Of a DNA stretch of 10,250 nucleotides, positions 1 through 7,648 are shown one piece after another. Position 1 is the first letter of the stretch. Each line of letters begins with the position of its first letter. Made by a program: the position numbers and the translations under genes. The stretch comes from JBBIVP01 sp037439705 [NCBI: bacterium] (GTDB lineage: Bacteria > JBBIVP01): the NCBI GenBank assembly GCA_037439705.1, contig JBBIVP010000063.1, forward strand, positions 1-10,250, written 5' to 3'. The notes beneath the pieces were generated by a model. That model saw only the letters and a list, made by a program, of their open reading frames with translations. It was not told where the DNA came from and did no database searches.

Positions 1-98
1 GGAGAGTAGCACAGGCATTCTTGCCTGTGAGAAGAAGAGCAAAAAGGAGAGTAGCACAGGCATTCTTGCCTGTGAGAAGAAGAGCAAAAAGGAGAGTA
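1..98. repeat. 45-bp tandem repeat with hairpin, 2.2 copies, cut by window edge
   Basis: Two identical 45-bp units occupy 1-45 and 46-90, and the first 8 bases of a third follow at 91-98. The array may extend left of the window. Each unit carries a perfect inverted repeat, CACAGGCA and TGCCTGTG around a TTCT loop, at 10-29 and again at 55-74. The rest of the unit is purine-rich. An open frame runs through the repeat because 45 is divisible by 3, but it gives a low-complexity Arg-rich peptide with no recognisable start context, so I do not read it as a gene. I infer a palindromic intergenic repeat of the REP type. Its function is unknown. Confidence 0.85.
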
Positions 99-242
99 AG
101 AGAGTGGAGAATTGGTAAAGGTTGGGATGAATTTTTTAGAAAAAGAATGGATGTGAGGAAAAAGATAAAAATGAAAAAATTCAAAAATAAACCAATTGCC
201 AAAAATATCCCCTCCTTTTTAAGAGACCATTTCTATTTTCCC
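99..242. other. Intergenic stretch with no recognised feature
   Basis: Between the tandem repeat and the promoter of the acyl-CoA dehydrogenase operon the DNA is purine-rich, then A+T-rich. I see no credible gene, tRNA or terminator in it. An open frame crosses it from the repeat but has no codon or domain character of a real protein. Confidence 0.5.
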
Positions 243-270
243 TTGACATTTATTACTATTGTAATAAAAT
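243..270 (+). promoter_or_regulatory. Sigma70-type promoter of the acyl-CoA dehydrogenase operon
   Basis: A perfect -35 box TTGACA lies at 243-248 and a -10 box TAAAAT (5 of 6 matches) at 265-270, with a 16-bp spacer. Transcription should begin near 277, leaving a leader of about 40 nt before the ATG at 317. A palindrome fills the spacer and a second similar site covers the predicted start point, so the promoter is probably repressed. The call rests on consensus matching only. Confidence 0.65.
249..268. promoter_or_regulatory. Putative operator site 1 (palindrome in promoter spacer)
   Basis: TTTATTAC and GTAATAAA form perfect 8-bp arms around TATT. The site lies between the -35 box and the end of the -10 box of the promoter just described. 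A dimeric repressor bound here would block RNA polymerase. The regulator is not in the window. TetR-type repressors often control acyl-CoA dehydrogenase genes, but assigning one here is inference. Confidence 0.55.
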
Positions 271-288
271 TTTAATACTATGGTAAAA
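271..288. promoter_or_regulatory. Putative operator site 2, near-copy of site 1
   Basis: TTTAATACTATGGTAAAA matches 15 of 18 positions of the sequence starting at 249 and is offset by exactly 22 bp, about two helical turns. Its own symmetry is weaker (5 of 8 arm positions). It covers the predicted transcription start. Two sites on one helical face would suit cooperative repressor binding. Confidence 0.45.
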
Positions 289-303
289 ACCTTACAAAAC
301 TTT

Positions 304-310
304 AAGGAGG
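304..310 (+). promoter_or_regulatory. Shine-Dalgarno of first acyl-CoA dehydrogenase gene
   Basis: AAGGAGG ends 6 nt before the ATG at 317. It is a full-strength site and fixes the start of this gene. A near-identical site at 1450-1456 precedes the second gene. Confidence 0.85.
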
Positions 311-316
311 TGGAAG

Positions 317-1444
317 ATGGCAATAGATTTTTCTTTGAATGAGGACGAGAGGATACTCGTTGAAACCGTAAACGATTTTGCACAGAAAGAGATTGTTCCG
401 AACATAAGAACTATTGAAGAAAACGGCATCTCTGACGAATTGAGGATAAAGGCTGTTGAGATGGGGTTGATGGGCATAGAATTTCCAGAAAATCTTGGAG
501 GTTCAGGACTTGGAATGTTTCACAGGGTACTGGTGACCGAAGCAATTTCCTCAGGAGACCCCGGAACGGCGTATTCACTTTTCATTCACCTTCCCTATTC
601 CTATTTTCTTCTTGAACTTGGAAATGAAGAAATAAAGGGAAAATATCTCAAACCTGTAATCACAGGAGCGAAAAAAGCCTGCCTTTTGAGGTCTGAATTC
701 TTAACCGATGATGTGATTACACCATTGAAATGGGAAAAGAGTAAAGAGGGTTACAAAATTTCTGGAAGGGGAGTAATTGAGGTTGAAAATCCTGATTTTG
801 TCCTTCTTCCTGCAAAATCGGATAATAAAATCGGATTTTTTCTTCTTGATGGTTTGAATGCCATTGAGTTCGGAAAAACGCTTCATAGATGTGGTGTTCA
901 ATCATCTCCTGCAAAGGAAGTCATTTTTAAGGATGTTGAATTGAAAGAAAATATGTGTATTACAGAAGATGCTTTTTCACACGAGAACTTTTGGAAGGCA
1001 GTGGTTAGGACGAGACTTTTCATATCAAGTATTCTTCTCGGATTAGCAAAAACCGCTCAGGAGTATTCCCTCAAATATGCTATGGAAAGGGTAGCTTTTG
1101 GTCAGCAGATAGCAAAGCATCAGGCAATATCCTTTATGCTTGCTGATCTTGCAACACAGGTTGAAGCAATAAGGCTTATACTCTGGAAAGCAGTTTATGA
1201 GTTTGACAGAAATTCATCCTCTCCCGAAAAACAAATAAGGTCTTCTGTCCTTGACTGGTCAATAGAAGCATACCTTCAGGCAGTAGATTATTCCTCTTCT
1301 ATTTCTGCAGATGCGGTTCAGATACTCGGCGGTCACGGATACATAAAAGACCATCCTGTTGAAAAATGGATGAGGGATGTAAAAGAGTTCGCCAATGCGT
1401 TCGGAAGACATGATGCTTTCAGAATAGTTATTGAAAACCTTTAA
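317..1444 (+). CDS. Acyl-CoA dehydrogenase homologue lacking the catalytic Glu; likely FAD-completing partner subunit
   Basis: The 375-aa protein has acyl-CoA dehydrogenase length and architecture: an N-terminal helical domain, a middle beta domain and a C-terminal helical domain. The C-terminal FAD-binding elements are well kept: R258-x-x-F261-G262, Q269 and QILGGHGY (335-342). In family structures these reach the FAD of a neighbouring subunit. The middle-domain motif usually read as LTEPGAGSD is degenerate (LLRSEFLTDD, 123-132). The catalytic Glu of the usual YEGT motif is replaced by Phe362 (AFGR, 361-364) in a gapless alignment with the next gene. It is therefore unlikely to dehydrogenate acyl-CoA alone. 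The adjacent gene, 19 bp downstream, retains exactly the missing elements. I infer the catalytically silent subunit of a heteromeric enzyme. Family membership is certain; the role is inferred and the substrate unknown. Confidence 0.9.
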   Translation: MAIDFSLNEDERILVETVNDFAQKEIVPNIRTIEENGISDELRIKAVEMGLMGIEFPENLGGSGLGMFHRVLVTEAISSGDPGTAYSLFIHLPYSYFLLELGNEEIKGKYLKPVITGAKKACLLRSEFLTDDVITPLKWEKSKEGYKISGRGVIEVENPDFVLLPAKSDNKIGFFLLDGLNAIEFGKTLHRCGVQSSPAKEVIFKDVELKENMCITEDAFSHENFWKAVVRTRLFISSILLGLAKTAQEYSLKYAMERVAFGQQIAKHQAISFMLADLATQVEAIRLILWKAVYEFDRNSSSPEKQIRSSVLDWSIEAYLQAVDYSSSISADAVQILGGHGYIKDHPVEKWMRDVKEFANAFGRHDAFRIVIENL

Positions 1445-1449
1445 ATTTT

Positions 1450-1456
1450 AAGGAGG
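1450..1456 (+). promoter_or_regulatory. Shine-Dalgarno of second acyl-CoA dehydrogenase gene
   Basis: AAGGAGG sits 7 nt before the ATG at 1464, inside the 19-bp gap between the two genes. There is no room for a separate promoter, so the two proteins are made from one message with matching initiation signals. That suits equal production of two subunits. Confidence 0.85.
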
Positions 1457-1463
1457 TGAGGCA

Positions 1464-2663
1464 ATGGAGTTAGAGTTAACACCAGCACAAAAAAATGTCA
1501 TTGAAATGGTGAGGTGGCTTGCTCTTGAAAAATTGAGACCACTCGGTCTTGAGTATGATAAAAAGGGAGAACCCATCCCTCCTGATCATCCTTTTTTCAA
1601 AGAAGCAAAGGCTATGGGAATAAGGATGGCTCTTGGAGATATTGGTAAGAGAAGAAAGGAACTCACCACAAAAGAGGGACCGGGCGAGATGGCAAGGCTC
1701 GGCATACTCGCTGCGGAGGAGATAGCCTATGGAGATACGGGCGTTGCTATGAGCCTTCCTGGTCCAGGGCTTGGTGGTCCACCAATACTCATAATGGGCA
1801 CACCCGAACAGCAGGATAGATTCTTTGGCATGCTTGAAGGAGATGAACCGAAATGGGGAGCATACGCGTTGACAGAGCCAGGCGCAGGTTCTGATGTGGC
1901 AATGATAAAAACCACCTGCAGAAAGGAAGGAAATTACTATGTTTTAAATGGGACAAAGATGTTCATAACAAACGGAGCAAGGGCTACATGGAATGTTGTA
2001 TTTGCTACAATAGACCCATCCCTTGGAAGGGAAGGGCACAGGGTATTTGTTGTAGAAAAGGGGACCCCAGGCTTTTATGCTGGAAAAATTGAAAAGAAGA
2101 TGGGATTAAAAGCTTCAGAGACAGCAGAGTTGGTTTTTGATGAGTGTAAGGTTCCGGTTGAAAACCTTCTCGGAGGCGAGGAAAGGTATAAAGAAAGGGC
2201 TGGTTTTAAGGCTGCAATGGAAACTTTCAATATGACAAGGCCTGCTGTTGCAGCAATGGGCATAGGAATAGCGAGAGCGGCATACGAATACACAAGGGAT
2301 TACTTCAAGGAAAATTACATGCTCTCAAGGCCAATTCCCCTTTATCATTCAATAAAAGAAAAATTAAATACAATGAAAAGGCTCCTTGATACCGCAAGGC
2401 TTCTCTGCTGGAAGGCAGCCTACATGATTGATTACAAACTTCCCAATGCAAAGGAGGCATCAATGGCAAAGGCTTATGCTCCCCCTGTCTGTCTATGGGT
2501 AACATCAAAGTGTATTGACCTTCTCGGTCAGGAGGGAACCCTTGAATACCACCATCTTGTTGAGAAATGCTACAGGGACATAAAGGTGTTTGACATATTT
2601 GAAGGAACAGGGCAGGCTCAGAGAATTGTTATATCAAGGAGGCTATTTTCACAATTTGAATAG
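1464..2663 (+). CDS. Acyl-CoA dehydrogenase, catalytic subunit
   Basis: A 399-aa flavoprotein of the acyl-CoA dehydrogenase family, which oxidises an acyl-CoA to the 2,3-enoyl-CoA and normally passes electrons to electron-transfer flavoprotein. The middle-domain FAD and substrate motif YALTEPGAGSD is intact at 134-144, followed by MFITNG (166-171). The catalytic base is Glu380 in FEGT (379-382), within RDIKVFDIFEGTGQAQRI. The elements that normally bind the FAD of the neighbouring subunit are eroded: R-x-x-FG is replaced by NYMLS (284-288) and Q-x-x-GG by DLLGQ (352-356). The upstream partner has both in good form. I infer that the two proteins form mixed dimers with FAD at the interface, as described for mycobacterial FadE28-FadE29. 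The open frame ends 6 bp from the convergent kinase gene. Chain-length or steroid-type specificity cannot be judged. Confidence 0.93.
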   Translation: MELELTPAQKNVIEMVRWLALEKLRPLGLEYDKKGEPIPPDHPFFKEAKAMGIRMALGDIGKRRKELTTKEGPGEMARLGILAAEEIAYGDTGVAMSLPGPGLGGPPILIMGTPEQQDRFFGMLEGDEPKWGAYALTEPGAGSDVAMIKTTCRKEGNYYVLNGTKMFITNGARATWNVVFATIDPSLGREGHRVFVVEKGTPGFYAGKIEKKMGLKASETAELVFDECKVPVENLLGGEERYKERAGFKAAMETFNMTRPAVAAMGIGIARAAYEYTRDYFKENYMLSRPIPLYHSIKEKLNTMKRLLDTARLLCWKAAYMIDYKLPNAKEASMAKAYAPPVCLWVTSKCIDLLGQEGTLEYHHLVEKCYRDIKVFDIFEGTGQAQRIVISRRLFSQFE

Positions 2664-2669
2664 CGAACT

Positions 2670-3515
2670 CTAAATGCAGAGATGATGTTCTCCGGTTTTT
2701 GGATTGACCACTAAATTGCCGAATTTTATAAATTTTATCCTTCCCGGGTCTCCGGAATAGGGAGTTAGAATTTCAAGTCTGCTCTCTGAATCAAAAGAGT
2801 TTATAATGGCAGAAGAAAGCATGAATTCATTCTCATCAAGAAGTCCTATTAGCCTTCCATTTAAAAGGTTTTCTTTGATATTTTCTTTAAACGATGAAGA
2901 ATTGAGAACCCTTAAAAATGCATTTTCAAAATATCTTCTGAAAGCTGATTCCCTGTATCTTTTTCTTTCTTCAGGACCCCTGGATTTTACCTTGGAAGAG
3001 GGACTTATGAACAGAAAATTTTTCGTAAGCGGAAGCATTGTTTCTCTTATCACAGGAGTAAGTTCTTCCTGCACAAGAATTATTATAAGGTCGAGAGAAA
3101 GTATTTTTATCTTTGATTCCTTCAGTGAAATAGCCTCATAAGTATTTATATAACCTGTTGTATCAATTACTGTAAAATCTGGATTTCTTTGAATCAGCCA
3201 CCACTTAAGTTTTAAAACCCCTTTCAAAACCTCAGGAATCACTCCCGAAGGGCTTATACTTCCTACAAAATAATGAGCTGTTTCCCTTTTCCAATCGTCT
3301 TCGTAATAGGCGTTAAGGGTTCCTGGTAATAAAGAGGACTGACCGAGATCAAGGTCAAGAAAGGCTCTTTTCAAACCTTTTGCACCAGCGATCCTTATAA
3401 GAAACTGGCATAAGGTTGTTTTGCCAGTATTTGTATCTCCGATGACCATTATACTTCCACCATTTTTCATTATATCTTTTATTTGTGGAGTAGAGAGGAG
3501 CTCTTCTATTTCCAC
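2670..3515 (-). CDS. Clp1/Grc3-family polynucleotide 5'-hydroxyl kinase (P-loop NTPase)
   Basis: The 281-aa protein has a Walker A loop GDTNTGKTT (26-34), then DLDLGQS with a following PGT (54-66), which are hallmarks of the Clp1 P-loop domain. YFVGSISP (82-89) and VIDTTGYI (116-123) match family blocks. A basic stretch near 175-196 ending RRYF resembles the Arg-rich lid. Family members phosphorylate 5'-OH ends of RNA or DNA: eukaryotic Clp1 and Grc3/Nol9 in RNA processing, and archaeal Clp1 as a polynucleotide kinase. The C-terminal part (about 215-281) is a small domain I cannot name. The start is GTG, 2 nt after the thyX stop (TAA-AA-GTG) and without a clear Shine-Dalgarno, so translation probably depends on re-initiation. 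An alternative ATG is residue 16 (about 3470). It is the last gene of the minus-strand operon. Substrate and partners are unknown. Confidence 0.75.
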   Translation of the reverse strand: MEIEELLSTPQIKDIMKNGGSIMVIGDTNTGKTTLCQFLIRIAGAKGLKRAFLDLDLGQSSLLPGTLNAYYEDDWKRETAHYFVGSISPSGVIPEVLKGVLKLKWWLIQRNPDFTVIDTTGYINTYEAISLKESKIKILSLDLIIILVQEELTPVIRETMLPLTKNFLFISPSSKVKSRGPEERKRYRESAFRRYFENAFLRVLNSSSFKENIKENLLNGRLIGLLDENEFMLSSAIINSFDSESRLEILTPYSGDPGRIKFIKFGNLVVNPKTGEHHLCI

Positions 3516-3517
3516 TT

Positions 3518-4144
3518 TTATTCAACCGGTTTTATTATAACCCTTTCCTCCTTCTCATCTATTTCCATATCACAAAATATGGTAGGAGAGTGATTCTTGA
3601 GAATCTTAAGAACTTCTATTGCAAGTTTTCTTATTTCCCACTGGCTTGATGGGTCTCCCCTCAACTGAATTATGTGCCTCCATTCCCTCATATTGGCAGT
3701 AACTACTATTTCGGTCTCTGTGGCGTTTGGAAGAACATACCTTGCATCCTGAGATTTTATTCCAGCTTCCTTCAGTTTTCTGTAAACATCGCGCGCAGTT
3801 TGCATAAATTCTTCATAAATTTTAAGGGCTGAAGGATTTTCTGAAATTGAAGGGGGAGTAATCCACGAAAAATTGCTTTCGTCCACATACCTCTGTGATT
3901 TTTGTGTGAATGATGCAATTCTGTGTCTCACTAACTGATGGGTTAAAGCCCTTGAAACCCCTTTTATTCTGAATGTAGCCCAGCCGTGTTCAAGCACGGA
4001 GTGGTGTCCTCTTTTAAGAAGCATTTTTATAAATGATTTTTCAGTCCCCTCACCCTCTTTTTCAAAGGATTGATATGATGTCCTTCCTGCCCTTTCTATA
4101 ACCTTTTCCACCTCAGGGGTTATGCTTATAAGTTCAACCTTCAT
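3518..4144 (-). CDS. thyX: Flavin-dependent thymidylate synthase ThyX
   Basis: A 208-aa protein of normal ThyX length. ThyX methylates dUMP to dTMP with methylenetetrahydrofolate, using FAD and NADPH, and unlike ThyA it releases tetrahydrofolate rather than dihydrofolate. The signature RHRxxSxxxxSxRY is present as R73-H-R-I-A-S78-F-T-Q-K-S83-Q-R85-Y86. HHSVLEH (47-53), ARYVLP (134-139) and NMREWRHIIQLR (151-162) are further family blocks for FAD and nucleotide binding. The ATG start lies inside the end of nadC with an 11-bp overlap (4134-4144) and only a weak GAAGG next to it, which points to translational coupling. The N-terminus MKVELIS fits the family start. No thyA or dihydrofolate reductase gene is in the window. 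Confidence 0.96.
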   Translation of the reverse strand: MKVELISITPEVEKVIERAGRTSYQSFEKEGEGTEKSFIKMLLKRGHHSVLEHGWATFRIKGVSRALTHQLVRHRIASFTQKSQRYVDESNFSWITPPSISENPSALKIYEEFMQTARDVYRKLKEAGIKSQDARYVLPNATETEIVVTANMREWRHIIQLRGDPSSQWEIRKLAIEVLKILKNHSPTIFCDMEIDEKEERVIIKPVE

Positions 4145-4991
4145 CCTTCAAAATTTCAAAATTCATATCAACGGATGGAGCGGAGTGGGTTATACTTCCC
4201 ATGGAAATATAATTAATTCCCTTTATCCTTTTAAGCCTTTTTATTCTTTCTTCATCAATTTTTCCTGAAATTTCAACCTCTGCCCTTCCGTTTATCATTT
4301 TCACTGCCTTTTTTATTTCTTCATCCGTCATGTTATCAAGCATTATTATGTCTGCTCCTGATTCTATGGCGGATTTTACTTCTTCTAATGTTTTCGCTTC
4401 CACCTCTATTTTTATAAAAGGGGTTAGCTTTTTTCTTACCTCCTCCACCGCATCTTTAATAGACCCCACCATCCTTATGTGATTTGTCTTTATAAGAATT
4501 CCATCGGAAAGTGAAAACCTGTGGTTGTATCCTCCTCCAATTCTTACTGCATATTTTTGAAGAGCTCTTAATCCCGGAAGGGTCTTTCTTGTATCCACAA
4601 GTTTTATTCCGGTTCCTTCAAGAAGTTCTGAGATTCTTCTCACATAGGTTGCAATTCCGCTCAGATGGGAAAGTATGTTCAGAGCAATTCTTTCTCCTTT
4701 AAATAAAGACCCTGCCCTTCCAGCCACAACTGCTATTACCTCTTTGTTATCAACCTCCTCTCCATCCTTCTTTAAAGGATTGAAGGAAACCAGGGGATCC
4801 ACCTTTTCAAAAACAAACCTTGCAACTTCAATTCCTGCAAGCACAAACCTTTCTTTTGCTTTTATGAATCCCCTTGCAGAGCAGTCCTTTATTGAGGAAA
4901 GATAATCTGTAGTTTTATCTCCGTAAGGAATGTCCTCTTCTATTGCTTTATTCACCACATCTTCAATTATGTGCCTGGCTATTTCAATCAT
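4134..4991 (-). CDS. nadC: Nicotinate-nucleotide pyrophosphorylase (quinolinate phosphoribosyltransferase)
   Basis: A 285-aa cytoplasmic enzyme that converts quinolinate and PRPP to nicotinate mononucleotide, CO2 and pyrophosphate in de novo NAD synthesis. Family blocks appear in order: PYGDKTT (22-28), GERIALNILSHLSGIAT (99-115), DTRKTLPGLRALQKYAVRIGGG (starting 133), YNHR (155-158), KTNH (168-171), EVEAKTLEE (196-204), IIMLDN (215-220), EISGKI (240-245) and ISMGSITHSAP (262-272). The DTRKT and GGG-YNHR segments carry the substrate-binding basic residues. It overlaps valS by 4 bp (ATGA, 4988-4991), and a GGAG about 8 nt upstream within valS serves as ribosome site. nadA and nadB, which make quinolinate, are not in the window. 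Confidence 0.97.
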   Translation of the reverse strand: MIEIARHIIEDVVNKAIEEDIPYGDKTTDYLSSIKDCSARGFIKAKERFVLAGIEVARFVFEKVDPLVSFNPLKKDGEEVDNKEVIAVVAGRAGSLFKGERIALNILSHLSGIATYVRRISELLEGTGIKLVDTRKTLPGLRALQKYAVRIGGGYNHRFSLSDGILIKTNHIRMVGSIKDAVEEVRKKLTPFIKIEVEAKTLEEVKSAIESGADIIMLDNMTDEEIKKAVKMINGRAEVEISGKIDEERIKRLKRIKGINYISMGSITHSAPSVDMNFEILKDEG

Positions 4992-7627
4992 CCTTTCATC
5001 TCCGAGAGAATTTTTATTTTTTCCTGAAGCACCTTAATCCTTTCGGAAAGAAGTCCTGCCTCCATCTCCGTTTTTCTGATCACCTCCTCCGGGGCCTTTG
5101 AAATGAAGTTTTCGTTTGAAAGTTTCTTCATAAGAAAAGAAAGTTCTTCTTCTGCCTTTTTCAACGCTTCCTGTGCCTTTTTTATCTCGTTCTCTCTGTT
5201 TATTATTAAGCCCTCTATGTTTATTCCTACTGCCATATCATCCACTTCCCTGATAACCGTATTTAAAATGTCTTTTGTCGGTTTTTCACATATAACTTCT
5301 GCATTCGCCCCTGTTAGATGGGAAATGATGTATAAAACTTTATTTATTTCTTTTCCAATGTTTTCGGATGCCCAGATTTTACAAAAAATTTCTCTTTCTT
5401 CCCCGATGTTATAATCCGATTTTATGTTTCTTATTGTGGTAACAATTTTCTTTATTTTTTCAAAAACTTCTGCTTCAGTTTTAAACTCATATTCATCTTT
5501 TTGGGGAAAATCTGCTATCATAATGCTTTTTCTATTGCTTTTGAAATTTTCTGGAATTCTATTCCATATCTCCTCTGTTATGAAAGGAATAACAGGATGA
5601 GAAAGTCTTAAGAACTTCTCCAGAACATATAAAAGGATATTTGATGTATTTTTGCATTTTTCTTCATCACCCTTATAAATGTGATACTTTGCAATTTCTA
5701 TATACCAGTCACAGAATTCCTTCCAGAGGAAATTGTAGATTTCCTGGGCATAAATATTAAACTCGTATTTCTCAAGAGCCCTTTCTGTTTTTTCAATTGT
5801 CTCATTTAATTTTGTAAGAATCCATTTGTCTTCAATTGTAAGTGGCTGGAACCCATCTTCCGAGGGTTTACCTGCAGTGAAAATGAACCTACTTGCATTC
5901 CAAATCTTGTTTATGAAATGCTTATATCCTTCAATTCTTTCTTCTGAAAGTTTTGTGTCCCTTCCCTGAGCGGTCATCGCGGTAAGTGTAAATCTCAGAG
6001 CATCGGTTCCGTATTTTTCCACCATATCAAGTGGGTCAATTACATTTCCTTTTGTCTTGCTCATCTTCTGCCCCGTAGCATCCCTTACCAGAGCGTGTAT
6101 GTAAACCTTTCTGAATGGCACCTCTTTCATTATGTAAAGTCCCATCATCATCATCCTTGCTACCCAGAAGGTTATTATGTCAAAACCTGTTACGAGAAGG
6201 GATGTAGGATAGAAGATTTTTAAATCCTTTGTTTTTTTTGGCCATCCAAGAGTTGAAAAGGGCCACAGAGCAGAACTGAACCATGTATCAAGCACATCTT
6301 CATCCTGTTTTATCCTTTCGCTTTTGCAATTATTGCATTTCTTCGGCGTGGTCTTTCTTACCATTATATTTCCGCAATCGGAGCAGTAATAGGCTGGAAT
6401 TCTGTGTCCCCACCATATCTGCCTTGAAATGCACCAGTCCCTCATATTATTGAGCCAGTGATAATAACCTCCAGTCCACATTTCAGGAATGAAAACTGTC
6501 TTTCCTTCCTGAACCGCCTTTAATGCCTCTTCAGCGAGGGGTTTTGTTTTCACAAACCACTGTTTGGAAAGCAAAGGCTCAACCACAGTTTTGCACCTGT
6601 AGCATCTGCCAAGTAAGATTTCATAATTTTCGGTCCTCTCAAAAAGACCTTTTTCACGGAGTGCTTCTATGATTTTTTCTCTTGCGGAAAATCTGTCAAG
6701 CCCCTCAAACTCTCCCGCTTCACGGGTCATTTTTCCTTCTTCATCTATTACCTTGATGGCTGGAAGATTGCAAGATTTTGCTATTTCAAAATCGTTGAAA
6801 TCGTGAGCAGGGGTAATTTTCAGGACACCTGTTCCGAATTCTTCTTCCACATAGGGATGGGTAATTACAGGGATTCTCCTTCCCACAAGTGGGAGTATGG
6901 CATATTTTTCATGATATTTCAGATACCTTTCGTCCCCAGGATTAACTGCAATGGCTGTATCTCCGAGCATTGTTTCGGGTCTTGTAGTGGCAACCGTTAG
7001 ATATTCCTTTTCACCTTCAATAGGATATCTTATGTAGTAAAGTTTTCCATTTTCCTGAGAACTTTCAACCTCAATATCTGCAAGGGCTGTTTTACACCTC
7101 GGACACCAGTTTATTATATAATCTCCTCTGTAAATTAACCCGTCATTCCATAGCCTTATGAAAGCCTCCTTCACTGCCAAACTCAATCCCCCGTCCATCG
7201 TGAAACGCTCTCTCGTCCAGTCACAGGAAGAGCCAAGTTTTTTCAATTGATAGATAATCCTGTTTCCGTACTCCTCCTTCCACTTCCAGACCCTTTCTAT
7301 AAATTTTTCACGCCCGAGTTCTTCTCTTGTAAGTCCTTCCTTTGCAAGCTCCCTTTCAACTACATTCTGAGTGGCAATTCCAGCATGGTCTGTTCCGGGC
7401 AACCACAATACTTCAAATCCCTTCATCCGTTTGTATCTTGCCACTATGTCCTGAATTGTGTTGTTGAGGGCGTGTCCCATGTGAAGGGAACCGGTTACAT
7501 TCGGGGGAGGAATTACCATTGAGAAAGGTGGTTTTTTTGAATTCAGGTTTGGAGTGAAAAATTTATTTTTTTCCCAGAAGGAATACCATTTGTCCTCTGT
7601 CTCTTTGTGGTTGTATGCCTTTTCCAT
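4988..7627 (-). CDS. valS: Valine--tRNA ligase
   Basis: A class I aminoacyl-tRNA synthetase, 879 aa from the ATG at 7627, a normal size. It charges tRNA-Val and edits misactivated threonine. From N to C: PPPNVTGSLHMGH with the HIGH motif as HMGH (49-52); Cys pairs CPRC (175-178) and CYRC (342-345), probably one zinc site; the editing-domain block TTRPETMLGDTAIAV (214-228); a second Cys set CSDC (415-418) and CNNC (431-434); DTWFSSALWPFS (447-458); KMSKTKGN (521-528), with Thr at the usual last Ser; an anticodon-binding helical domain; and a C-terminal coiled-coil arm (about 809-879). An in-frame GTG at 7639 would add four residues. I prefer the ATG because MEKAYNHKETEDKWYSFW fits the usual start and a weak GGAAG precedes it. 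No T-box leader is visible. It overlaps nadC by 4 bp. Confidence 0.97.
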   Translation of the reverse strand: MEKAYNHKETEDKWYSFWEKNKFFTPNLNSKKPPFSMVIPPPNVTGSLHMGHALNNTIQDIVARYKRMKGFEVLWLPGTDHAGIATQNVVERELAKEGLTREELGREKFIERVWKWKEEYGNRIIYQLKKLGSSCDWTRERFTMDGGLSLAVKEAFIRLWNDGLIYRGDYIINWCPRCKTALADIEVESSQENGKLYYIRYPIEGEKEYLTVATTRPETMLGDTAIAVNPGDERYLKYHEKYAILPLVGRRIPVITHPYVEEEFGTGVLKITPAHDFNDFEIAKSCNLPAIKVIDEEGKMTREAGEFEGLDRFSAREKIIEALREKGLFERTENYEILLGRCYRCKTVVEPLLSKQWFVKTKPLAEEALKAVQEGKTVFIPEMWTGGYYHWLNNMRDWCISRQIWWGHRIPAYYCSDCGNIMVRKTTPKKCNNCKSERIKQDEDVLDTWFSSALWPFSTLGWPKKTKDLKIFYPTSLLVTGFDIITFWVARMMMMGLYIMKEVPFRKVYIHALVRDATGQKMSKTKGNVIDPLDMVEKYGTDALRFTLTAMTAQGRDTKLSEERIEGYKHFINKIWNASRFIFTAGKPSEDGFQPLTIEDKWILTKLNETIEKTERALEKYEFNIYAQEIYNFLWKEFCDWYIEIAKYHIYKGDEEKCKNTSNILLYVLEKFLRLSHPVIPFITEEIWNRIPENFKSNRKSIMIADFPQKDEYEFKTEAEVFEKIKKIVTTIRNIKSDYNIGEEREIFCKIWASENIGKEINKVLYIISHLTGANAEVICEKPTKDILNTVIREVDDMAVGINIEGLIINRENEIKKAQEALKKAEEELSFLMKKLSNENFISKAPEEVIRKTEMEAGLLSERIKVLQEKIKILSEMKG

Positions 7628-7648
7628 TTTTTCTTCCACTATGAAAGA

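What the first reader, a model, noticed from the sequence alone, without database searches (positions are those of the whole stretch)
317..2663. Two adjacent acyl-CoA dehydrogenases with complementary losses: one split, heteromeric enzyme
Seen directly: the first protein keeps R258-xx-FG and Q335-xx-GG, which bind the neighbour's FAD, but has lost LTEPGAGSD and has Phe362 for the catalytic Glu. The second keeps LTEPGAGSD (136-144) and Glu380 but has lost R-xx-FG (NYMLS) and Q-xx-GG (DLLGQ). Every element is retained in exactly one partner. Known: in acyl-CoA dehydrogenases FAD lies between subunits, and mycobacterial FadE28-FadE29 form alpha2beta2 tetramers with half the FAD sites. Inference: this pair forms the same architecture in an organism where the substrate need not be a steroid, so it may be an undescribed heteromeric subclass.
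Basis: partly seen in the sequence, partly recalled or inferred. Interest (0 to 1): 0.7.

Follow-up and report, generated by a model that had tools for sequence, protein, structure and literature searches.

The report
Two-gene acyl-CoA dehydrogenase of new lineage
Two neighbouring genes appear to encode the two halves of one fat-oxidising enzyme: one half carries the active site, the other only helps to hold the flavin cofactor, and this split seems to have evolved separately from the known split enzymes of steroid-eating bacteria.

Summary
P1 (317-1444) keeps only the FAD-donor motifs; P2 (1464-2663) keeps only the FAD-pocket motif and catalytic Glu380. The division is conserved: R-xx-F is in 26/26 P1 and 0/27 P2 relatives, Glu376 (MCAD numbering) in 0/26 and 27/27. 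Of 43 P1-family loci, 33 have P2 adjacent, 3 within 3 kb, 6 elsewhere in the genome, 1 not found. Best reading: an obligate heteromer, probably alpha2beta2 with two FADs. It works like the steroid enzyme ChsE4-ChsE5 but is not a member of that family: the base sits at position 376 instead of 255, both subunits form their own clades near MCAD, and a joint origin of the catalytic subunits is rejected (p-AU 0.019 and 0.0017). For the partner subunits rejection depends on sampling (0.19 and 0.038). So this looks like a second, probably convergent, lineage of split acyl-CoA dehydrogenases, in several phyla; ten searches of an open-licence library found no report of it. Complex formation and substrate are untested.

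The parts
317..1444 (+). P1: non-catalytic, FAD-donor subunit (ACAD fold; lost FAD pocket motif and catalytic Glu)
   Evidence: Pfam; motif counts; AlphaFold2 single chain pLDDT 93.4, best PDB Z 43.5 to SCAD 8sgs
1085..1102 (+). P1 ERVAFG (R258, F261): donor motif for the partner's FAD
   Evidence: position; R258 and F261 invariant in the 37 rows of A1, P1 itself included
1319..1339 (+). P1 QILGGHG (Q335): donor motif for the partner's FAD
   Evidence: position; Q335 and G341 invariant, G338 and G339 at 90% or more
1394..1414 (+). P1 NAFGRHD: Phe362 where catalytic Glu376 would be
   Evidence: Glu376 in 0/26 P1
1464..2663 (+). P2: catalytic, FAD-pocket subunit (MCAD-like; lost donor motifs)
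   Evidence: Pfam all three domains; best PDB sequence match 1ukw, 3.8e-76; AlphaFold2 single chain pLDDT 81.9, best Z 41.2 to 1ukw, tied with other MCADs
1869..1895 (+). P2 LTEPGAGSD: FAD-pocket motif
   Evidence: E138 and A141-D144 invariant in the 32 rows of A2
2310..2327 (+). P2 ENYMLS: site of the lost R-xx-FG
   Evidence: R281 with F284 in 0/27 P2
2517..2537 (+). P2 DLLGQEG: site of the lost Q-xx-GG
   Evidence: Q/H-xx-GG in 0/27 P2
2598..2615 (+). P2 FEGTGQ: catalytic base Glu380 (MCAD Glu376)
   Evidence: E380-G381-T382 invariant in the 32 rows of A2
243..270 (+). sigma-70-like promoter TTGACA-16-TAAAAT upstream of the pair
   Evidence: 11 of 12 matches, the best of 8 sites in 1-3600; shuffles give 7.1 sites at the scan's threshold of 9 of 12; not evidence of function
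249..290 (+). operator-like palindrome TTTATTAC-TATT-GTAATAAA (249-268) and a second imperfect copy (271-290) overlapping the promoter
   Evidence: 3 matches at 2 sites (one site read on both strands) against 0.05 expected; the pattern was derived from this site, so that figure is optimistic; function inferred only

Best explanation
P1 and P2 are the two subunits of one acyl-CoA dehydrogenase. Shown by sequence: P2 has the FAD-pocket motif and the catalytic Glu but lacks the residues that an ACAD normally lends to its neighbour's FAD; P1 has only those lent residues. Inferred: P1 and P2 form a dimer in which the single FAD of P2 is completed by R258/F261/Q335 of P1, while the reciprocal site is dead; two dimers make an alpha2beta2 tetramer with two FADs. 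Glu380 removes the alpha proton of an acyl-CoA, the beta hydride goes to FAD, and electrons go to an ETF-type acceptor. The system arose by duplication and complementary decay of an MCAD-like homotetramer, apart from the steroid/dicarboxylate heteromers. The substrate is unknown; in several Bacillota the pair sits among beta-oxidation genes, so a fatty or other lipid acyl-CoA is the likeliest class.
For: Complementary motif retention across 26 P1 / 27 P2 (wider table). P1's invariant residues include the donor residues, P2's the pocket and base. Linkage: 33 of 43 P1 loci have P2 adjacent (overlap or gap under about 250 nt), 3 more within 3 kb, 6 with P2 elsewhere in the genome. From the P2 side: of 21 P2 places found in Bacillota, Myxococcota and Planctomycetota samples, 13 are places already seen; of the 8 new ones 7 have a P1-type neighbour within the fetched flank. 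Parallel trees of 26 pairs: r 0.85, 0 of 20000 permutations as high; same nearest pair in both trees for 17 of 26. Two P2 copies in 5 of 5 Calescibacteriota genomes. Own clades P1 100/97 and P2 100/99; L102, an ordinary ACAD with all motifs, branches next to P2 (93/76). P2 + reference catalytic subunits as one clade rejected, p 0.019 and 0.0017; P1 + reference partners p 0.038 in the second set. L023 carries the operon TetR-ACAD-SCP2-FadD-SDR-thiolase-ECH with one complete ACAD where others have the pair. Confident full ACAD fold for P1.
Against: No complex was predicted or measured; stoichiometry is by analogy. P1 + reference partner subunits as one clade is not rejected in the full 82-row set (p 0.192); the set that rejects it was pruned of long branches after that result was seen. 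P1+P2 as one clade is not rejected (0.342), so which ordinary ACAD gave rise to each is open. L009 (a MAG) has P1 but no P2 above 40% identity; L187 has a P2 without its first 70 model positions and no P1 in the flank. P2's own model is weak at 379-393, around Glu380. The parallel trees partly reflect host phylogeny.
Confidence: 0.85

Rival explanations
1. The pair is simply a member of the known steroid/dicarboxylate alpha2beta2 family (ChsE1-E2, ChsE4-E5, IpdE1-E2, PimCD) in another organism.
For: Same division of FAD-site motifs: reference catalytic-type subunits 6/6 pocket and 0/6 donor, reference partners 6/6 R-xx-F and 0/6 pocket. The joint partner clade is not rejected in the full set (p 0.192).
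Against: Reference catalytic-type subunits have Glu255 (6/6) and no Glu376 (0/6); P2 has Glu376 (27/27) and no Glu255 (0/27). Each group is one clade in all 200 bootstrap trees examined. Joint catalytic clade rejected. P2's best PDB match is 1ukw, and 4x28 and 6wy8 are not among the 60 of 111 matches shown.
Confidence: 0.07
2. P1 and P2 form a heteromer with another stoichiometry (one alpha-beta dimer, or an unequal mix), or P1 is mainly an allosteric or stabilising subunit.
For: No oligomer data. P1 changes about 2.4 times faster than P2 by path length.
Against: ACADs of this size are mostly tetramers (established knowledge); strict conservation of R258, F261 and Q335 in P1 points to FAD binding.
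Confidence: 0.1
3. P1 is a decaying copy of no function and P2 works alone.
For: P1 has lost the catalytic base and the middle-domain signature.
Against: Open frame with its own ribosome site; donor residues invariant in 37 sequences; P2 has lost the donor residues, so its FAD site looks incomplete alone.
Confidence: 0.03

Closest known systems
ChsE4-ChsE5 (FadE26-FadE27, PDB 4x28), ChsE1-ChsE2, Tcur3483-Tcur3481 (6wy8), IpdE1-IpdE2: steroid alpha2beta2 ACADs
   Same: Two subunits; one with FAD pocket and base, the other with the donor residues; per passages of PMC8399759 and PMC11153573, one FAD and one catalytic Glu per heterodimer, the other subunit contacting the ADP-ribose part
   Different: Catalytic Glu at 255 instead of 376 in the references compared; separate clades; P2's best PDB match is MCAD-type
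PimC-PimD-like pairs (dicarboxylic acid catabolism)
   Same: Paired, motifs split in the same way; PMC12543098 (passages) says such a pair may be a heterotetramer
   Different: Fall with the ChsE groups; Glu255-type base
Medium-chain acyl-CoA dehydrogenase (human MCAD, T. thermophilus 1ukw)
   Same: Nearest solved relatives of P2 (3.8e-76 to 1ukw; Z 41.2); Glu376-type base
   Different: Has all motifs in one chain; homotetramer with one FAD per chain (established knowledge)
CasC (fused two-domain steroid ACAD)
   Same: One domain is needed for FAD binding, the other has the catalytic Glu (PMC8399759, passage)
   Different: Single fused chain; not compared by sequence here

Membership tests
Acyl-CoA dehydrogenase superfamily | ACAD N-terminal, middle and C-terminal domains in the ACAD fold | tested here: met
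   P2 all three, P1 N and C by Pfam; both full ACAD fold by AlphaFold2 and PDB comparison
Steroid/dicarboxylate heteromeric ACAD (ChsE/IpdE/PimCD) | FAD-site motifs divided between two subunits | tested here: met
Steroid/dicarboxylate heteromeric ACAD (ChsE/IpdE/PimCD) | Catalytic Glu at position 255, none at 376, in the catalytic subunit | tested here: not met
   Glu255 6/6 references, 0/27 P2; Glu376 0/6 references, 27/27 P2
Steroid/dicarboxylate heteromeric ACAD (ChsE/IpdE/PimCD) | Catalytic subunit falls in the FadE26/FadE29/PimC clade | tested here: not met
   own clade 100/99; joint clade p-AU 0.019 and 0.0017
Steroid/dicarboxylate heteromeric ACAD (ChsE/IpdE/PimCD) | Partner subunit falls in the FadE27/FadE28/PimD clade | tested here: inconclusive
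   own clade 100/97; joint clade p-AU 0.192 in 82 rows, 0.038 in a pruned 60-row set
Steroid/dicarboxylate heteromeric ACAD (ChsE/IpdE/PimCD) | alpha2beta2 tetramer with two FADs | not testable with these tools
   only single chains could be modelled
Steroid/dicarboxylate heteromeric ACAD (ChsE/IpdE/PimCD) | Lies in a steroid or dicarboxylate degradation cluster | not tested
   loci were not scanned for steroid-ring genes; the window's downstream neighbour tested is a CLP1-type protein
MCAD-type homotetramer | Pocket, base and donor motifs all in one chain | tested here: not met
   neither P1 nor P2 has all

The most novel reading that the evidence does not exclude
Split acyl-CoA dehydrogenases evolved at least twice: here from an MCAD-type homotetramer by duplication and reciprocal decay of the two half-sites, probably in non-steroid lipid oxidation, in scattered bacteria (Calescibacteriota, Bacillota, Myxococcota, Planctomycetota, Nitrospirota, Dadabacteria): convergence within one enzyme family, driven either by neutral mutual dependence or by the need for a larger pocket.
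Probability: 0.7. Interest if true: 0.68.

Novelty: new variant of a known kind. Interest (0 to 1): 0.6.

Why it matters
The split ACADs named in the passages read here act on steroids or, as suggested, dicarboxylic acids. A second lineage with the base at the other classical position gives an independent replicate: one can test whether the split follows from substrate size or from reciprocal decay of duplicated subunits. It also means that each such pair in a genome is one enzyme, not two, and that P1 proteins annotated as acyl-CoA dehydrogenase are probably not catalysts. The operon of L023, where one complete ACAD stands in the pair's place, gives a natural comparison.

Tried and rejected
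Known-family membership by curated model: no NCBIfam equivalog reaches its cut-off (best for P2: acryloyl-CoA reductase 261.7 bits against 640; for P1 the same model 139.6). Plasmid collection: 1760 records match P2, none at 60% identity or more; the best of the 30 rows shown is 40.2%, and none of them was examined for pairing. The P1 profile alone cannot classify P1: a Bacillota search gave 132 of 299 genomes at E <= 1e-70, and of the 30 loci fetched only L140 (the seed pair) is P1-type by motif, while the P1 of L134 scores just 156 bits, below many ordinary ACADs; so that search neither shows nor excludes P1 without P2. Operator pattern: no match in the 132 loci then held, so no shared regulator is shown. 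Structure comparison: 4x28 and 6wy8 are not among the 50 entries shown for either model; this says nothing about the fold. Papers: ten searches listed no paper whose title or shown abstract reports an MCAD-type split ACAD; the library is open-licence only. Four papers were opened, as passages: PMC12543098, PMC6678751, PMC11153573, PMC8399759. The primary ChsE and IpdE papers are not held. Rows dropped: five of the 48 loci (L023, L026, L030, L032, L046) are ordinary ACADs and are left out of the 43; L039's ORF 3-1388, another ACAD, was not counted as P1. The 43 loci lie in 39 genomes by their titles (L001/L021, L002/L019, L004/L040, L005/L041 share one each). The tree dropped 28 of 82 rows and added six ordinary ACADs after the first AU results had been seen; an AU test of all four groups together was started, did not finish and was not repeated.

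Full report
What is there. The window carries two co-directional ORFs, P1 (317-1444, 375 aa) and P2 (1464-2663, 399 aa), 19 nt apart, each preceded by AAGGAGGTG. The genes downstream run the other way: a CLP1-type P-loop protein, then, by my reading of the translations only, ThyX, NadC, ValS and pantothenate genes. So the pair looks like its own two-gene unit. A sigma-70-like promoter at 243-270 (11 of 12 matches) overlaps a perfect 8+8 palindrome (249-268) and a second imperfect copy (271-290). No whole genome is held for the window. Among 13 genomes compared, its ValS is nearest to that of an unplaced bacterium (G018, 56%) and Dadabacteria CSP1-2 (G006, 54%), with 49-51% to three Calescibacteriota genomes; partial matches of 57% and 60% cover only part of the protein. 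The host is not placed.

The observation. On human MCAD numbering P1 has R281, F284 and Q349-xx-GG but neither the TEPGAGSD pocket nor Glu376; P2 the reverse. In ACADs the 281/284/349/353 residues reach the FAD of the neighbouring subunit (established knowledge of MCAD). Over 82 aligned proteins the counts are: R281 with F284 26/26 P1, 0/27 P2, 17/17 ordinary; Q/H349-xx-GG 25/26, 0/27, 17/17; TE..GSD 0/26, 27/27, 17/17; Glu376 0/26, 27/27, 15/17. Exceptions: P1 of L041 lacks the GG; P2 of L044 and L047 keep an Arg at 281; one P2 has Phe284; five P2 keep Gln349 without GG. Among the 37 P1 sequences R258, F261, Q335 and a DHPVEKWMR block are invariant; among the 32 P2, E138, AGSD, K165, N170 and E380-G381-T382.

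Distribution and linkage. One scan of the 84,980-species genome collection with P1 gave 48 loci, a method that finds close relatives only; 43 are P1-family, in 39 genomes by title. P2 is adjacent in 33 (overlap or gap under about 250 nt; in L013 cut by the contig end), within 3 kb in 3 (L011, L031, L040), about 19 kb off in L048, elsewhere in the genome for five Calescibacteriota loci, and not found for one MAG (L009). From the other side, P2-profile searches found P2-type proteins in 2 of 299 Bacillota genomes (one is the seed), 8 of 195 Myxococcota, 9 of 246 Planctomycetota and 5 of 5 Calescibacteriota, the last with two copies each (thresholds E 1e-110, 1e-135, 1e-135, 1e-100; five further Bacillota matches of 369-407 bits are ordinary ACADs with all motifs and are not counted). 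Of the 21 P2 places in the first three samples, 18 have a P1-type neighbour in the fetched flank. But 13 of the 21 are places already seen; of the 8 new ones, 7 have a P1-type neighbour. The three misses are L175 (= L031, P1 2.6 kb away), L178 (= L040, P1 about 1.6 kb away) and L187, a P2 without its first 70 model positions, not followed further.

Origin. A careful ML tree of 82 proteins puts P1 in one clade (100/97), P2 in one clade (100/99), the reference catalytic-type subunits in one (100/100) and their partners in one (100/98). P1 and P2 lie on the MCAD side; L102, an ordinary ACAD with every motif, branches next to P2 (93/76). Holding P2 with the reference catalytic subunits is rejected (p-AU 0.019; 0.0017 in a 60-row set pruned of long branches). 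Holding P1 with the reference partners is not rejected in the full set (0.192) but is in the pruned one (0.038). P1+P2 as one clade is not rejected (0.342). The base differs too: Glu255 in 6/6 reference catalytic subunits and 0/27 P2, Glu376 in 0/6 and 27/27. P1 and P2 trees run in parallel (26 pairs, 22 of them linked within 3 kb and 4 paired by genome and tree place: r 0.85, 0 of 20000 permutations; 24 pairs without L044/L047 r 0.77, 0 of 20000; same nearest pair in both trees for 17 of 26), and P1 changes about 2.4 times faster. Pairing the four unlinked ones by tree place makes r slightly favourable, and host phylogeny contributes; but where one genome holds two systems (L004/L040, L005/L041), P1 and P2 group by system, not by host.

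Structure. AlphaFold2 gives P1 a confident complete ACAD fold (pLDDT 93.4), so the losses are of motifs, not of the fold; P2 reaches 81.9 with weak stretches at 56-62 and 379-393. Closest solved structures shown: for P1 Z 43.5 to SCAD 8sgs (rmsd 2.2, 361 aligned; tied with others), for P2 Z 41.2 to 1ukw (rmsd 2.4, 357 aligned; tied with other MCADs). Complexes could not be run.

Role. In Bacillota the pair sits among beta-oxidation genes: in L025 TetR-P1-P2-SCP2-AMP ligase-SDR-enoyl-CoA hydratase (Pfam); by homology search full or partial sets in L010, L016, L017, L018, L035 and L042, none in L036. L023 shows the same cassette with one complete ACAD in place of the pair, and no P2-type protein above 41-44% in its genome. 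In L001 and L002 an SDR follows the pair. Other loci show none of these neighbours (for example L004-L008 and L027), and no locus was scanned for steroid-ring genes. Lipid acyl-CoA oxidation is the likeliest role; the substrate is inferred, not shown.

Comparison. It works like ChsE4-ChsE5 and relatives, in which review passages state one FAD at the dimer interface and one catalytic Glu per heterodimer (PMC8399759, PMC11153573). PimCD-like pairs are suggested to be heterotetramers (PMC12543098). Membership in that family fails on base position and on the clade of the catalytic subunit; for the partner subunit it is open. Ten literature searches listed no report of an MCAD-type split enzyme; the 29 papers listed are by title mostly on mycobacteria and steroids, with one on dicarboxylic acids and one on human LCAD, and most were seen as listings only.

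Noticed in passing
L157:2679-3803 (-) and 1483-2622 (-): A Bacillota ACAD with pocket motif and EGT Glu but DLSRAG and DLWGLEG at the donor sites stands next to an ACAD that keeps all motifs: possibly a third kind of mixed ACAD with one complete partner.
   Followed up: no
window 1-90: Two exact tandem copies of a 45-bp unit, each holding the palindrome CACAGGCA-TTCT-TGCCTGTG, upstream of the pair.
   Followed up: no
window 2670-3515 (-): A CLP1-type P-loop protein (PF16575, 5.3e-26), a family named after an mRNA cleavage and polyadenylation factor, in a bacterial-looking gene neighbourhood.
   Followed up: no
L023:7216-14235: Same operon as the Bacillota pairs but with one complete ACAD in place of P1 and P2: a natural swap.
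   Followed up: partly
L176, L177, L044, L047: Divergent pairs with other donor-loss patterns in P2 (AEAGYG, VEPDYG, RENYG, RSEYG), which may record intermediate steps of the split.
   Followed up: partly
window 4988-7639 (-) against 1464-2663: ValS is nearest to G018 and Dadabacteria (56%, 54%) whereas P2 is nearest to Calescibacteriota (67%), hinting at transfer of the pair between lineages.
   Followed up: partly
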